Below are positions 10,143 through 63,691 of a stretch of DNA of 64,000 nucleotides, piece by piece (positions within the stretch are counted from its first letter, which is position 1; each line of letters begins with the position of its first letter). The notes beneath the pieces were generated by a model. The model saw nothing but the letters and a program-made list of their open reading frames with translations. It was not told the DNA's origin and did no database searches. Position numbers and translations under genes: made by a program. The stretch spans positions 1 through 64,000 of the forward strand of contig DUMZ01000020.1 of assembly GCA_012839565.1 (NCBI GenBank), given 5' to 3'. Source of the DNA: Anaerolineaceae bacterium. Its GTDB lineage: Bacteria > Chloroflexota > Anaerolineae > Anaerolineales > Anaerolineaceae.

Positions 10143-10280
10143 AATCATTTTTGTAACGATAGAGACGCTTTATATGAGTATCAGATTTGGCGATAATATC
10201 TATCACCCCTTCTCTAAACAAATACCAGGATACTGTGCATTATCGCTTAAGGATTAAAGCATAAGTCTTATAATAGCGCT

Positions 10281-11099
10281 ATGGCAAACCCGAAATTTGA
10301 AACATACCGACATTTTAAGCGACCTGGGCTGATGAGACGGCGGGTGGATGTGTGGCTGCCGGCGCGGTATCATGCCGAGCCTGAGCGCAAATTCCCGGTG
10401 CTTTATATGCACGACGGGCAGAACGCTTTTACGCGCAGTCCTTATGTGGGCACGGGCTGGATGGCGCATGAATGCATCGACACCCTGGCGGCTGAAGGGA
10501 AAATCACGCCACCTGTGGTGGTTGCCATCAGCTGCACGCTAAACCGCATAGGCGACTATCTGCCCCAAAAACCGCTGGCTTATCCTGGCGCGGTGGACTA
10601 TGTAAAACAAATTACGCCGCGCTATTTTTGGCCTCGCAGTGAGGTATCGGACGAATATTTGCGCTTGATTGTGCAGGATATCAAGCCTTTCATCGACAGT
10701 AACTATCGCGTGCTGAGCAATGCTGAACACACCGCGATGATGGGCTCGAGTATGGGCGGTTTGATTTCGCTTTATGCGCTGACGGAATATCCGCAGGTCT
10801 TTGGAAAGGTGGCTTGCCTGAGCACGCACTGGCCTATTTTGGGCGAGTATTTTATGCGATACCTGCGCGAAACCCTGCCCGAAGCGGGGGCGCATAAGCT
10901 CTATTTTGACCATGGGGGCGCAGGTTTGGACCAGCAATACGCGCCTTATCAGGCCGAGACAGACGCGCTGATAAAGGCGAAGGGCTACCAGGCTGGGATT
11001 GATTTTCAGAGCCTGTTTTTTGAGAACGACGACCATAACGAGCTCTTTTGGTCCGCGCGTTTGCATTTGCCGATGACGTTTTTGTTCGCTTTGCAGTAA
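10281..11099 (+). CDS. Esterase, alpha/beta hydrolase of the esterase D / Fes type
   Basis: A 272-aa cytoplasmic hydrolase (no signal peptide). The start PVLYMHDGQNAFTRS is typical of the PF00756 esterase group. The nucleophile elbow GSSMG has Ser157; the acid is probably in YFDHGGAGLD and the histidine in ENDDHNELFW near the C-terminus, so the triad is complete. The substrate is unknown: members act on enterobactin, S-formylglutathione, acyl or carbohydrate esters. TATAAT at 10269-10274 leaves only 6 nt before ATG, so the mRNA is probably leaderless. Stands alone between the STAND gene and a repeat region. Confidence 0.85.
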   Translation: MANPKFETYRHFKRPGLMRRRVDVWLPARYHAEPERKFPVLYMHDGQNAFTRSPYVGTGWMAHECIDTLAAEGKITPPVVVAISCTLNRIGDYLPQKPLAYPGAVDYVKQITPRYFWPRSEVSDEYLRLIVQDIKPFIDSNYRVLSNAEHTAMMGSSMGGLISLYALTEYPQVFGKVACLSTHWPILGEYFMRYLRETLPEAGAHKLYFDHGGAGLDQQYAPYQAETDALIKAKGYQAGIDFQSLFFENDDHNELFWSARLHLPMTFLFALQ

Positions 11100-22905: not shown

Positions 22906-22938
22906 TAAAACGATGATTAGATAGGCTATAATTCCACT

Positions 22939-24242: not shown

Positions 24243-24374
24243 TCAGTAAATGACCAAAGACAGGGAAGTTGGTAGCTTCCTTGCTTATTTAATGTACTTC
24301 GCAATAGATTTCCAGGCGGGACTAACAAAATCAGGCTAAAAAATGACCTGTTCAATATCGGTTACAATGCAACT

Positions 24375-27244: not shown

Positions 27245-27333
27245 ACCCGAAAGACCGTAACTTTTAATAAAGAATAAACCCCGCTTTGCATCAGTTCAGT
27301 GTATAATAAGGACGTTCTGGAAAAGGAGTGTGC

Positions 27334-27828
27334 ATGAAAGTCAAGGTTGACCAGGATTTATGTATCGCTTGTGGCATTTGCGAAGGGGATTTGCCCGAAG
27401 TCTTTCACATCGGTGACTCCGGCTTTGCCGAAGTCATCATGTGCCCGGTTGAAGCTGATTTTCACGACATGCTGCAACAAGTGGCAGAAGCTTGCCCCAC
27501 TGCCGCAATTCAAATCAAGGAAGCTAAATGCTCAGAACAGAAAGCGGAAACGCCAAAGGGAGCTTGCCGTGGCGCAGATGCCAGCAAACCCATTGAGGAC
27601 GTATCAACCAATACAAACCCCGAAAGGAATGTGAATATGAAAATTAAAGTTGTCGAAGATCTGTGCATCGGTTGTGGTATCTGCGAAGGTATCGCGCCTG
27701 AGGTTTTTAGCCTTGAAACCGAACCCTATGCTGTTGTTCTTTTGGAAGCAATCCCCGAAGAATTACAGGCGGACGTTCGCGAAGCGGCTGATGCCTGCCC
27801 AGAAGCTGCCATCGAAATCGAAGAGTAA
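27334..27828 (+). CDS. Tandem ferredoxin: two [4Fe-4S] units in one polypeptide
   Basis: A 164-aa protein of two homologous halves. Half 1 has CIACGIC then ACPTAA; half 2 (from Met102) has CIGCGIC then ACPEAA: each gives the C-x2-C-x2-C...C set for one [4Fe-4S] cluster. Each half is the size of a complete single-cluster ferredoxin of the Thermotoga/Desulfovibrio type. The linker (about 65-100) has extra Cys residues. AAAAGGAG precedes ATG 27334; half 2 also has its own site, GAAAGGAATG, before ATG 27637, so a single ferredoxin may be made as well. Electron carrier in the cytoplasm. Terminator follows. Confidence 0.88.
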   Translation: MKVKVDQDLCIACGICEGDLPEVFHIGDSGFAEVIMCPVEADFHDMLQQVAEACPTAAIQIKEAKCSEQKAETPKGACRGADASKPIEDVSTNTNPERNVNMKIKVVEDLCIGCGICEGIAPEVFSLETEPYAVVLLEAIPEELQADVREAADACPEAAIEIEE

Positions 27829-27880: not shown

Positions 27881-27946
27881 TATTAATACGCTCATTCTAA
27901 TCAGCTCATAAACACGCTATGTTAGCTTTTCAGATATAATAAGAGC

Positions 27947-31772: not shown

Positions 31773-32330
31773 TTAATCGCTCTTGATTTTCAAACTGCGG
31801 ATAATTTTATCAAAAGTACGTACGTTTGCGTCCCAGGAGGCCTTATCCGCCATTGCCACAAAAGCGATGGTGTGGGTCTTGTGTGTGCCGATGACCACCC
31901 GGCCTACCAGGTAGCTGTCGTCAACCGGTTTGGCGAAATCAAGCCCCACGGCAGGTTTTTTGTCGATTTTTAGTTCGCTTTTATTGTAGATTTCGTAGTC
32001 GTCGTCAATCAGCTCGTCCATCCAGTTTTCAAGCTTTTGGGAACTTTCTTCCAGAATTTCATCGCGGGCTTCAGACTGTGTTTTAGAAAAATAGAGATAG
32101 ACGCGAAAGTTTTCATCGCCTTCGCTGTAATCATCAGGCGCGATGCGATACTGCGTGTTGTCGTCACTGGCTAAAGCGACAAGCTCCCAGTTTTCCGGCA
32201 AGGAGATAGTAAAGGGCAGGCTTTCATCCACCCACGGGCTAAGGGGCAAGGCTTTGGCCTGGTAGCTGCAAGCCCCGCACAGGAGCAAACCCGCCAGCGC
32301 GAATAATCCAAGACGATGTCGTAAATGCAT
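31773..32330 (-). CDS. Lipoprotein, 185 aa
   Basis: Signal peptide with lipobox LLLCGAC (Cys21). The rest is a compact domain (PFTISLPENWELVALA, then FRVYLYFSKTQSEA) resembling PsbP/MOG1-like lipoproteins in pattern; no function is known. The -10 box TACAAT (32342-32337, minus) leaves exactly 6 nt to ATG, so the mRNA is probably leaderless. It shares a 38-bp intergenic region with the divergent metalloprotease gene. Confidence 0.75.
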   Translation of the reverse strand: MHLRHRLGLFALAGLLLCGACSYQAKALPLSPWVDESLPFTISLPENWELVALASDDNTQYRIAPDDYSEGDENFRVYLYFSKTQSEARDEILEESSQKLENWMDELIDDDYEIYNKSELKIDKKPAVGLDFAKPVDDSYLVGRVVIGTHKTHTIAFVAMADKASWDANVRTFDKIIRSLKIKSD

Positions 32331-32368
32331 GCCTGCATTGTACCCGAAAATACGATTATAATGAGTTC
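32331..32368. promoter_or_regulatory. Divergent leaderless promoter pair in 38 bp
   Basis: TACAAT on the minus strand (32342-32337) and TATAAT on the plus strand (32357-32362), each 6 nt before its own ATG. The two polymerase footprints overlap, so the two genes should exclude each other's initiation. Confidence 0.65.
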
Positions 32369-33064
32369 ATGCCTACGAAAAACGGTGCCAGTCCCGCGCC
32401 CCTGGAGTATAAAATTATCTATAGCAAGCGCAAGACCATCGAGTTGCGTTTTGATGGGGCTAATCTTTTGCTCATCAAAGTGCCCCAACGCACCCGCAAA
32501 TCAGCGATTGAAGCCATTTTGCACCAAAAAGCGGACTGGATCGAGCGCACGCGCAAGCGGCTCGCCCAGCGTTTGCCGGTGCCACAGATGGTGCAAGGCG
32601 AGCAAATTTTGCTTTTGGGCAGCTGGCACAGCTTGAATATTCGAAAAGTGGTGACACCCGACGAGATTTTTAACACGCCCGGAGTGATAACGCTCAGCCA
32701 AAAGCTCGCCAGCCAGGGCGCTGCCGGGCTCATACCGCTTTACCGGCAAGTGACGCGCCAGTGGACTGAACATTACGCGCAAATTTACAGCGAGAAACAC
32801 CAGCTGCCCTACAATGGCATTCGCGTTAGCAGTGCCAAAACGCGCTGGGGCTCGTGCGGGGCGAACAACACGCTGAACTTCTCATGGCGTTTGGCAATGA
32901 CGCCGTTGCTTTCCATTGAGTACGTCGTGGCGCACGAACTGGCGCACATCAAACACCGCAATCACAGCAAAGCATTTTGGGGTTTCGTGGCGCAAATCAT
33001 GCCGAATTACGAGCAAGGCCGCGCCTGGCTCAAACAAAACGGTCATGCTCTGCCTGTGTTTTGA
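32369..33064 (+). CDS. YgjP/WLM-type zinc metallopeptidase (DUF45)
   Basis: A 231-aa protein with VVAHELAHIKHRNHSKAFW: the HELAH zinc motif lies at residues 189-193, and the following HxxH-like Asn/His residues fit the DUF45/SprT-like family. Just before is RWGSCGANNTLNFSWRL, the other family block. The N-terminal part (1-100) is the usual YgjP leader. Cytoplasmic. TATAAT at 32357-32362 is 6 nt before ATG. Family is annotated as a metal-dependent hydrolase; the substrate is unknown. Confidence 0.87.
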   Translation: MPTKNGASPAPLEYKIIYSKRKTIELRFDGANLLLIKVPQRTRKSAIEAILHQKADWIERTRKRLAQRLPVPQMVQGEQILLLGSWHSLNIRKVVTPDEIFNTPGVITLSQKLASQGAAGLIPLYRQVTRQWTEHYAQIYSEKHQLPYNGIRVSSAKTRWGSCGANNTLNFSWRLAMTPLLSIEYVVAHELAHIKHRNHSKAFWGFVAQIMPNYEQGRAWLKQNGHALPVF

Positions 33065-33163: not shown

Positions 33164-33913
33164 ATGAACATCGCGATTATTGAAGACCAAAAGGCACAGC
33201 GCGAAGCGTTATATCAAGCCACCCGGGACTGGCTGCGAACCAACGCGCCTACGGGGCGGGTTATGGCATATCAGAGCGCGGAAAGTTTTCTTTTCGCCTG
33301 GGAAGAGGAATCTTTTAACCTCTTACTGGTTGATATTCAGTTGCCCGGCGAGAGTGGCATCGCGCTGGTAGAGCGCCTGCGCGCCAAGGGTCACGAAACA
33401 ATGGTGGTTTTTATCACGGGGGTTAAGGAGTTTGTCTTCCAGGGCTATAAGGTCAACGCGCTGGACTACCTGTTGAAACCAGTCAGCATCAAGGACCTGT
33501 ATGCCGTGCTGGAAAAGGCGCAGGCCAGGCTGGCGCGGCAGTCGCCCCGTTTGCTTTTGGAGCTAGGCGGGGTGCTGAGTGAGATAGCCATTGAGACAAT
33601 CCATTATATTGAAGTGCTCGGGCATACCAGCACGCTGTTTTATAACCGTCCCGGCAACCCGCCTGATGTGGCCCTTTTGGAGTTTTCCAGTCGCTACAGT
33701 CTGCAAAACTGGCTGAACCGCCTGGAAGAAGTCGCCGGACCGGGGGTGTTTATTTCCCCGCACCGTAGTTTTATTGTGCATTTGGGTTGGGTGTCGCGCA
33801 TCAGCCGTGATGAACTCAAAATGGCGGATGGCTTCATCGTGCCTATCGCGCGCGGTCGCTGGCAGGAGGTCTCAAAGGCGTGGCTGGCGTACCGACGGGG
33901 GCATAGCGCATGA
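33164..33913 (+). CDS. LytTR-type response regulator
   Basis: A 249-aa regulator: receiver domain with IIEDQKAQ, phosphoacceptor Asp57 (LLLVDIQLPG) and the switch Lys in YLLKPVSI, then a LytTR DNA-binding domain (about 140-245) with GVFISPHRSFIVHLGWVSRI. LytTR regulators control virulence, bacteriocin or competence genes by binding two direct repeats one turn apart. TATAGT at 33149-33154 is 9 nt before ATG, near leaderless. Its stop overlaps the kinase start by 4 bp. The likely target is the ABC pair at 35374. Confidence 0.92.
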   Translation: MNIAIIEDQKAQREALYQATRDWLRTNAPTGRVMAYQSAESFLFAWEEESFNLLLVDIQLPGESGIALVERLRAKGHETMVVFITGVKEFVFQGYKVNALDYLLKPVSIKDLYAVLEKAQARLARQSPRLLLELGGVLSEIAIETIHYIEVLGHTSTLFYNRPGNPPDVALLEFSSRYSLQNWLNRLEEVAGPGVFISPHRSFIVHLGWVSRISRDELKMADGFIVPIARGRWQEVSKAWLAYRRGHSA

Positions 33914-39586: not shown

Positions 39587-39663
39587 GAAGGTCAGCTTTT
39601 AGCCCGGAAATATCCACGAATAGAAAACGATATCTCGCACGTCGCGCGTGCTATAATTTCGCC

Positions 39664-50669: not shown

Positions 50670-50691
50670 ATCTCAATTATACCAAAAACCC

Positions 50692-53630: not shown

Positions 53631-53723
53631 GTGGGGTAGATTGTTTAGTATTGTGAAACAATGTGCTTGCACTTGTAAAAAGCGAACTGATTAATAACAG
53701 CAAAAACGCGATAAAATAGGCCT

Positions 53724-54443: not shown

Positions 54444-54464
54444 AAAATACGATAAAATAGAGTT

Positions 54465-59222: not shown

Positions 59223-59816
59223 CTATGCTCCTTTATTATTTTCCTTTATGATCTTGTCTTGTGCAATCAAACCCTTGCCAAGTTGAAAACGATGGCTTAC
59301 ATCAAAGCTGTCCTCAGAGCTTTGGCTGGCGAGCAGGATATTATCCACACGCATGCGCCACAGGAACGGTTCTGGGGCCAAAAATTGTTTTATCTCGCGC
59401 ATTGTGGCTTCCGTTAATCCTTCGCTGGCTAAAGTGATATGCGGTGTCCAGGTTTTTGGACTGTAAAGCGTGCTCACCGTCTGGCTATGGGGCAATAAGA
59501 TTCTCCATAGTTCTTCGTGCATTTCGACAACTTGTTTTTCGGGCACGATTTTGATAAACAGTACCGTTTCTTCGCCATCGAAATGCGCCAGGCCCTGTGT
59601 TTCTATAAAAAAAGGCTTGTGTTCTTTGCTGAAAGACTCTAAAAGGGGAACGAGTGCGTTAATATCATGCTTTTCGGCAATTTGCCAGCTGAAATGGGGA
59701 ATGGGATTCTGCCATACGAACTTTATGCCAAAACGACGGTCCAGGTCTGACCATATCTTTTTTACCGCTTCGTAATAGGGCGGTGGCAGTTGGGAGATTA
59801 AACCGTGTATCGCCAT
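59223..59816 (-). CDS. 2'-5' RNA ligase superfamily (2H phosphoesterase) protein
   Basis: A 197-aa protein with two HxT-type motifs: PHFSWQIAEK near 43 and WTPHITLASEGL near 146. In the first the second residue is Ser. The family includes 2'-5' ligases and cyclic phosphodiesterases. ATG 59816 follows a TATATT/TATTTT -10-like box 7-9 nt upstream, near leaderless. First gene of the ABC-2 operon, 3 bp before the ATPase. Confidence 0.82.
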   Translation of the reverse strand: MAIHGLISQLPPPYYEAVKKIWSDLDRRFGIKFVWQNPIPHFSWQIAEKHDINALVPLLESFSKEHKPFFIETQGLAHFDGEETVLFIKIVPEKQVVEMHEELWRILLPHSQTVSTLYSPKTWTPHITLASEGLTEATMREIKQFLAPEPFLWRMRVDNILLASQSSEDSFDVSHRFQLGKGLIAQDKIIKENNKGA

Positions 59817-59913: not shown

Positions 59914-60501
59914 ATGGAAACTGAATCAAAGACCAAATCTCAGCGCTCAAAGCTGTGGACTCTTTTCATTAATATGCTCTATATCAGCACCTTCACCTTC
60001 GGTGGGGGCTTTGTGATTGTCAACTTTATGCGCAAGGCTTTTGTTGAAAGACTGGGCTGGATAGACGAAGACGAAATGCTGGATCTCATCGCCCTGGCGC
60101 AAAGTTCGCCGGGCGCTATCGCGGTCAATGCGTCTATTCTCGTGGGTCAGCGCGTGGCGGGTTTTGCGGGTATGGCGGTTTCGGTTTTGGGCACCATCCT
60201 GCCCCCGATGATTATCCTGACCATCATTTCGTTTTTCTATGAGGCCTTTGCCACAAACAAGTACGTCAACTTGATGCTAAAAGGCATGCAGGCTGGTGTA
60301 GCCGCCTTGATTTTGGACGTGGTCTTTGACCTGACGATCAATCTCTCCAAACGCCAGCGCCCGGTGCACGTCTTCATGCTGGCAGCTGCTTTCGTCGCCA
60401 CTTTTCTCTTCAATGTCAACGTCGTTTTTATCATCCTGACCGCAGCATTGATAGGCGTGTTTCTCAACTTATGGGACAGAAAGCTGGTCTTGCTCATATG
60501 A
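59914..60501 (+). CDS. Chromate transporter, first half (ChrA-type)
   Basis: A 195-aa protein with about 5-6 TM spans. FTFGGGFVIVNFMRKAFVERLGWI and LAQSSPGAIAVNASILVG are the CHR-family signature. Short-chain type: two genes form one transporter. TATACT at 59899-59904 is 9 nt before ATG. The stop overlaps the second gene by 4 bp. Confidence 0.9.
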   Translation: METESKTKSQRSKLWTLFINMLYISTFTFGGGFVIVNFMRKAFVERLGWIDEDEMLDLIALAQSSPGAIAVNASILVGQRVAGFAGMAVSVLGTILPPMIILTIISFFYEAFATNKYVNLMLKGMQAGVAALILDVVFDLTINLSKRQRPVHVFMLAAAFVATFLFNVNVVFIILTAALIGVFLNLWDRKLVLLI

Positions 60502-63673: not shown

Positions 63674-63691
63674 ATGTGCTAAAATTCCCTT

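What the first reader, a model, noticed from the sequence alone, without database searches (positions are those of the whole stretch)
10269..10283. Strict leaderless promoter architecture: -10 box, 6 nt, ATG in eleven genes
TATAAT, TACAAT or TAAAAT ends exactly 6 nt before ATG at 10281, 22939, 24375, 27947, 32369, 39664, 53724, 54465 and 63692 on the plus strand, and at 32330 and 50669 on the minus strand. Three more genes (33164, 59816, 59914) have a near-fit of 7-9 nt. These genes mostly lack ribosome sites. The sharp spacing implies transcription starts at or very near the A of ATG and is a main gene-expression mode in this organism.
Basis: partly seen in the sequence, partly recalled or inferred. 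Interest (0 to 1): 0.7.

Follow-up and report, generated by a model that had tools for sequence, protein, structure and literature searches.

The report
Leaderless-gene promoters in an Anaerolineae bacterium
About one gene in eight of this Chloroflexota bacterium appears to be transcribed from a promoter box that sits six or seven bases before the start codon, so that the messenger RNA should begin at the start codon with no ribosome-binding leader; this is a real, conserved, but already known way of starting genes, and it is the minority mode here.

Summary
All eleven sites are present: TATAAT, TACAAT or TAAAAT ends exactly 6 nt before an ATG that starts a gene. The window has 13 such matches against 2.0 expected. 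Genome-wide, TATAAT-N6-ATG occurs 50 times against 6 for the reversed control. In a start-site model on 597 genes, 13.6% are -10-led at 6-8 nt (60 at 6, 20 at 7, 1 at 8), against 1.2% for E. coli. These genes have a pyrimidine at -1 (71/81), G at -14 (46/81) and no clear -35. They sit at transcription-unit heads (25% of divergent heads, 4% of operon-internal genes). The spacing matches the RNA polymerase preference for starting 7 bp after the -10 element. Orthologues keep it: HolB 26/26, TilS 27/27, YgjP 21/23 within the genus. Leaderless transcription is therefore the best explanation. No RNA data were available.

It is not a main mode, because Shine-Dalgarno-led genes make up about 70%. The spacing is also not strictly 6, because 7 is common. 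The three near-fits are weak. Leaderless genes with a TAtaaT box were already predicted in Chloroflexi in 2011. This is a new member of a known kind.

The parts
10269..10274 (+). -10 box TATAAT, 6 nt before ATG 10281 (esterase)
   Evidence: same architecture in the closest relative (G010) and TAAAAT at 6 nt in one more; most other orthologues have a short leader instead
22927..22932 (+). -10 box TATAAT, 6 nt before ATG 22939 (140-aa protein, no Pfam family)
   Evidence: posterior 0.99
24363..24368 (+). -10 box TACAAT, 6 nt before ATG 24375 (VanZ-like)
   Evidence: posterior 0.93
27935..27940 (+). -10 box TATAAT, 6 nt before ATG 27947 (MGDG-synthase-like glycosyltransferase)
   Evidence: posterior 1.0
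32337..32342 (-). -10 box TACAAT, 6 nt before ATG 32330 (lipoprotein-like ORF); divergent partner of 32369
   Evidence: same geometry in L049-L051
32357..32362 (+). -10 box TATAAT, 6 nt before ATG 32369 (YgjP-like metallopeptidase)
   Evidence: box 6-8 nt before the start in 21 of 23 genomes of the genus
39652..39657 (+). -10 box TATAAT preceded by TGc, 6 nt before ATG 39664 (TilS)
   Evidence: 27 of 27 resolvable genus orthologues
50676..50681 (-). -10 box TATAAT, 6 nt before ATG 50669 (DtxR-family iron-dependent repressor)
   Evidence: posterior 1.0
53712..53717 (+). -10 box TAAAAT, 6 nt before ATG 53724 (DNA alkylation repair protein)
   Evidence: posterior 0.98
54453..54458 (+). -10 box TAAAAT, 6 nt before ATG 54465 (HIT-domain protein)
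   Evidence: posterior 0.97
63680..63685 (+). -10 box TAAAAT preceded by TGTGc, 6 nt before ATG 63692 (334-aa protein read as DNA polymerase III delta' HolB; continues beyond the window)
   Evidence: 26 of 26 genus orthologues
33164..33166 (+). start codon of a claimed near-fit; box TACAAT is 14 nt away, a poorer TATAGT 9 nt away: not accepted
59814..59816 (-). start codon of a claimed near-fit; TATATT 9 nt away: weak
59914..59916 (+). start codon of a claimed near-fit; TATACT 9 nt away: weak

Best explanation
The boxes are -10 elements of promoters recognised by the primary sigma factor. RNA polymerase starts about 7 bp downstream of the -10 element, which here is the A of the ATG (8 bp when the spacer is 7), so the mRNA is leaderless. 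Shown: the position, consensus, fixed spacing, pyrimidine at -1, G at -14 (extended -10), lack of a clear -35, position at transcription-unit heads, and conservation in orthologues. Inferred: the actual 5' end of the RNA, recognition by the primary sigma factor, and translation by direct binding of a 70S ribosome (or a 30S carrying initiator tRNA) to the 5'-terminal start codon. The mode coexists with a majority of SD-led genes, whose -10 boxes, where visible, lie mostly 24-35 nt before the start codon.
For: Spacing spike at 6-7 nt in the window, the sampled genome and relatives. EM model: 81 of 597 genes (60 at 6, 20 at 7, 1 at 8); same model 1.2% in E. coli, 18% in D. deserti plasmid P1. Of TAHAAT-ATG pairs in the sample, 52 of 79 at 6 nt and 17 of 36 at 7 nt fall on a candidate start codon of a called gene, against 1-6 of 17-35 at other distances from 3 to 14 nt. 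Pyrimidine at -1 in 71/81, G at -14 in 46/81. Transcription-unit heads: 42 of 168 divergent heads against 7 of 193 operon-internal genes; Fisher p=1.6e-7 against SD genes. Bimodal -10 distances: 6-7 nt, and mostly 24-35 nt for SD heads. Orthologues: HolB 26/26, TilS 27/27, YgjP 21/23, while three distant HolB paralogues (DnaX-like) are SD-led. E. coli RNA polymerase prefers to start 7 bp after the -10 element (PMC5730371).
Against: No transcript 5' ends, ribosome profiling or proteomics were available. The gene caller was home-made and misses some genes; for 10281 it preferred a later start. The shares are model estimates from 858 kb of a 1.97-Mb draft genome. Most 10281 orthologues lack a box at 6 nt, several having it about 19 nt upstream with a short leader, so leaderlessness is not fixed for every gene.
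Confidence: 0.93

Rival explanations
1. The box is a promoter, but the RNA starts a few bases up- or downstream of the A, giving a very short leader or a transcript whose real start codon is the next one.
For: Start-site choice varies by 1-2 bp in E. coli (PMC5730371); 7-nt spacers exist.
Against: The pyrimidine at -1 fits the A as +1 (71/81). Orthologues start at this same codon although flanks differ. A leader of 1-3 nt would behave as leaderless in practice.
Confidence: 0.05
2. The AT-rich box is a translation signal in the RNA (a ribosomal protein S1 site or unstructured start region) rather than a promoter, with transcription starting further upstream.
For: AT-rich sequence upstream of non-SD genes has been discussed as a possible S1 site (PMC5397173).
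Against: A defined TATAAT hexamer with fixed spacing, an extended -10 G and a -1 pyrimidine; nearly absent from operon-internal genes (7 of 193), where an RNA signal would still be useful.
Confidence: 0.02
3. Chance matches picked out by eye in AT-rich intergenic DNA.
For: Two of the 13 window matches do not start recognised genes.
Against: 13 against 2.0 expected, 50 against 6 genome-wide, conserved in orthologues at 31-89% protein identity.
Confidence: 0.001

Closest known systems
TA-led (leaderless) genes of bacteria, Zheng et al. 2011 (PMC3160421)
   Same: A Pribnow-like box about 12 bp upstream of the start codon (first T), TAtaaT in medium-GC genomes, explicitly including Chloroflexi; mixed with SD-led genes.
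   Different: That survey found them in 4 of 12 Chloroflexi genomes at 4.0-5.7% of genes; here the estimate is 12-14% in an Anaerolineae genus and the signal spans its order.
-10-motif adjacent to ORFs in Deinococcus-Thermus, Zhong et al. 2025 (PMC12340547)
   Same: -10 box 6-7 bp before the ORF, leaderless mRNA, coexistence with ribosome-site genes; there tested by reporters and transcriptomes.
   Different: Deinococcus box is TANNNT, most often TACACT, and in nearly one third of genes; here TATAAT, TAAAAT or TACAAT in about one eighth.
GeneMarkS-2 class of bacteria with leaderless transcription (Lomsadze et al. 2018, as cited in PMC9581028)
   Same: Bacteria with leaderless transcription in up to 40% of transcripts.
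   Different: I could not check whether Anaerolineae were placed in that class.
Extended -10 promoters lacking a -35 (E. coli/Lactococcus type)
   Same: G at -14 in 46 of 81, TG at -15/-14 in 19 of 81 and frequent in TilS and HolB orthologues; no clear TTGACA enrichment.
   Different: Here coupled to a start codon at +1.

Membership tests
Leaderless (TA-led) bacterial genes | -10-like box with its first T about 12 bp upstream of the start codon | tested here: met
   Mode 6 nt from box end to ATG, i.e. first T at -12
Leaderless (TA-led) bacterial genes | No Shine-Dalgarno site | tested here: met
   Nine of the eleven are in the -10-led class with posterior 0.93-1.0; 10281 and 63692 were not scored at that start by the model but show no SD site in the sequence
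Leaderless (TA-led) bacterial genes | Transcription-unit head rather than operon-internal | tested here: met
   42/168 divergent heads against 7/193 internal
Leaderless (TA-led) bacterial genes | Mapped transcript 5' end at the start codon | not testable with these tools
   No RNA data held; the -1 pyrimidine and spacing agree with it
Leaderless (TA-led) bacterial genes | Translation by 70S ribosomes from a 5'-terminal AUG | not testable with these tools
   From the literature only (PMC9031893)
Deinococcus-type -10-motif | Box 6-7 bp before the ORF in about 30% of genes | tested here: inconclusive
   Spacing met; share 12-14%; same model gives 18% for D. deserti P1, so the model may underestimate
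Extended -10 promoter | TG at -15/-14 replacing a -35 | tested here: inconclusive
   G at -14 in 46/81 (p=6e-16), full TG in 19/81, no clear -35 enrichment
Shine-Dalgarno-led genes | AGGAG-like site about 3-9 nt before the start | tested here: not met
   Not met by these eleven genes, met by about 70% of the sampled genes

The most novel reading that the evidence does not exclude
In this order of Anaerolineae, being leaderless is a conserved, gene-specific trait: tilS, holB and ygjP stay leaderless across the genus although protein identity to the window's copy falls to about 31-50% in the most distant members. Selection would then keep these genes in a separate translational class, for example expressed when initiation-factor or 70S ribosome levels change, and not merely on a cheap promoter layout.
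Probability: 0.25. Interest if true: 0.5.

Novelty: new member of a known kind. Interest (0 to 1): 0.3.

Why it matters
It shows that leaderless genes are a regular, conserved class in a large, mostly uncultured group of Chloroflexota, at two to three times the share reported for the phylum in 2011. In practice, gene finders that rely on ribosome sites may misplace these starts (my own caller did so at 10281), and the first base of the start codon can be predicted as the transcription start for about one gene in eight. For specialists it is expected rather than surprising.

Tried and rejected
Chance: rejected. Variant hexamers (TAGAAT, TATACT, TATATT and others) tested one by one in 464 kb showed no comparable spike at 6 nt. 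GTG and TTG starts show no spike in this sample, although GTG occurs in some orthologues. A -35 element: no clear TTGACA enrichment at 16-18 nt compared with other offsets. Rfam: no RNA families in the window. AlkD orthologues: too few and truncated to be informative. Shuffled upstream regions in the EM lost the motif and the spacing peak. Small-sample EM runs on relatives and controls (87-234 genes) are rough.

Full report
Where the window lies. It is contig C20:1-64000 of a 1.97-Mb, 20-contig draft genome. So this is a Chloroflexota bacterium of the Anaerolineae. G+C is 48.5% in the window and 46.4% in the first 464 kb sampled.

Observation. All eleven sites are exact. The window has 13 TAHAAT-N6-ATG matches against 2.0 expected, and no shuffle reached 13. 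Distances from box to ATG spike only at 6. Across the genome TATAAT-N6-ATG occurs 50 times against 6 for the reversed pattern. In 60 relatives from genus to order it exceeds the reversed control in all, though narrowly in a few. In a phylum-wide draw it is strong in the same order, present in several other families and absent or uninformative in many, some perhaps because TATAAT is rare in high-GC genomes (the GC reason is inference). Lewinella, Alkalimonas and Peregrinibacteria genomes show no excess.

How common. I wrote a coding-potential gene caller and an EM model in which every gene start is SD-led, -10-led or neither, with motifs and spacings learned from flat distance priors. On 597 genes from 858 kb it learned AGGAG-like SD sites, mostly at 3-7 nt, for 70% of genes, and a TATAAT box for 17.7%, with 50% of the weight at 6 nt and 16% at 7 nt. 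By best assignment 81 genes (13.6%) have the box at 6-8 nt: 60 at 6, 20 at 7, 1 at 8, none at 5. With shuffled upstream sequence the motif and the spacing peak vanish. The same model puts 11.7% of UBA5404 genes, 13% in a family member, 9% in a Chloroflexus MAG, 18% on D. deserti plasmid P1 and 1.2% in E. coli at 5-8 nt. The mode is real but a minority one. The window share (11 of 49) is only modestly above the rest (70 of 548, p=0.08).

Anatomy. These genes have C or T at -1 in 71 of 81 cases, and G at -14 (box numbering) in 46 of 81 against a 17% background. A -35 element is not evident. E. coli RNA polymerase prefers to start 7 bp after the -10 element, rarely more than 2 bp down or 1 bp up (PMC5730371). 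With a 6-nt spacer the A of the ATG is base 7, and with 7 nt it is base 8, so the observed 60, 20, 1 and 0 genes at bases 7, 8, 9 and 6 fit. The genes head transcription units: 25% of divergent heads are of this type against 4% of genes within 30 nt of a co-directional upstream gene (Fisher p=1.6e-7 in the related test). Among SD-led divergent heads the -10 boxes lie mostly at 24-35 nt. Box distances are therefore bimodal: transcription seems to start either at the start codon or about 17-28 nt upstream, which leaves room for an SD site. The two classes are exclusive in the model, so the absence of a 6-nt box among SD genes is partly by construction.

Conservation. TilS: all 27 genus orthologues with a readable start have TATAAT before it (20 at 6 nt, 6 at 7, 1 at 8), at protein identities down to 31%; three start with GTG. 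HolB (63692): 26 of 26 have TAAAAT, TAGAAT or TACAAT at 6 nt (24) or 7 nt (2), most with a TG just upstream of the box. Three distant paralogues of about 30% identity, probably DnaX, that the search also returned are SD-led, a useful internal control. YgjP (32369): 21 of 23 have the box at 6-8 nt. Across the order 20 of 31 TilS loci have a box at 6-9 nt. The esterase at 10281 is different: the box is 6 nt away here and in UBA5404, and TAAAAT at 6 nt in one more, but several other genus members have TATAAT about 19 nt upstream and others have SD sites, so this gene changed mode.

Divergent pair. Genes 32330(-) and 32369(+) have 38 bp between their start codons, and each has its own box 6 nt from its ATG. 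The same layout with the same 38 bp is found in two other species (L050, L051).

Interpretation and novelty. Leaderless transcription fits all of this. Translation by 70S ribosomes binding the 5'-terminal AUG is taken from the literature (PMC9031893) and was not tested. Leaderless genes with a TAtaaT box were predicted in Chloroflexi in 2011 at 4.0-5.7% of genes in 4 of 12 genomes (PMC3160421). A box 6-7 bp before ORFs was tested by experiment in Deinococcus (PMC12340547). One text search for leaderless genes in Anaerolineae found no study of them; the library is incomplete. I file this as a new member of a known kind.

Noticed in passing
window 32328-32371: Two divergent genes, each leaderless by this criterion, share a 38-bp gap holding both -10 boxes; each gene's upstream promoter region must lie partly in the other gene. 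Geometry is identical in three species (L049-L051).
   Followed up: partly
window 10255-10283 and loci L184-L197: The esterase gene seems to switch between leaderless and short-leader forms: several genus orthologues carry TATAAT about 19 nt before the ATG instead of 6, others an SD site.
   Followed up: partly
loci L128, L132, L133 (tilS): Three tilS orthologues have TATAAT exactly 6 nt before a GTG start, suggesting leaderless initiation at GTG.
   Followed up: no
sampled genome, SD-led divergent heads: SD-led heads have TAHAAT boxes mostly 24-35 nt before the start, implying short leaders of about 17-28 nt as a usual form.
   Followed up: partly
window 27300-27334: Gene 27334 shows a TATAAT about 26 nt upstream followed by AAAGGAG: a clear example of the short-leader class next to the leaderless gene 27947.
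   Followed up: no
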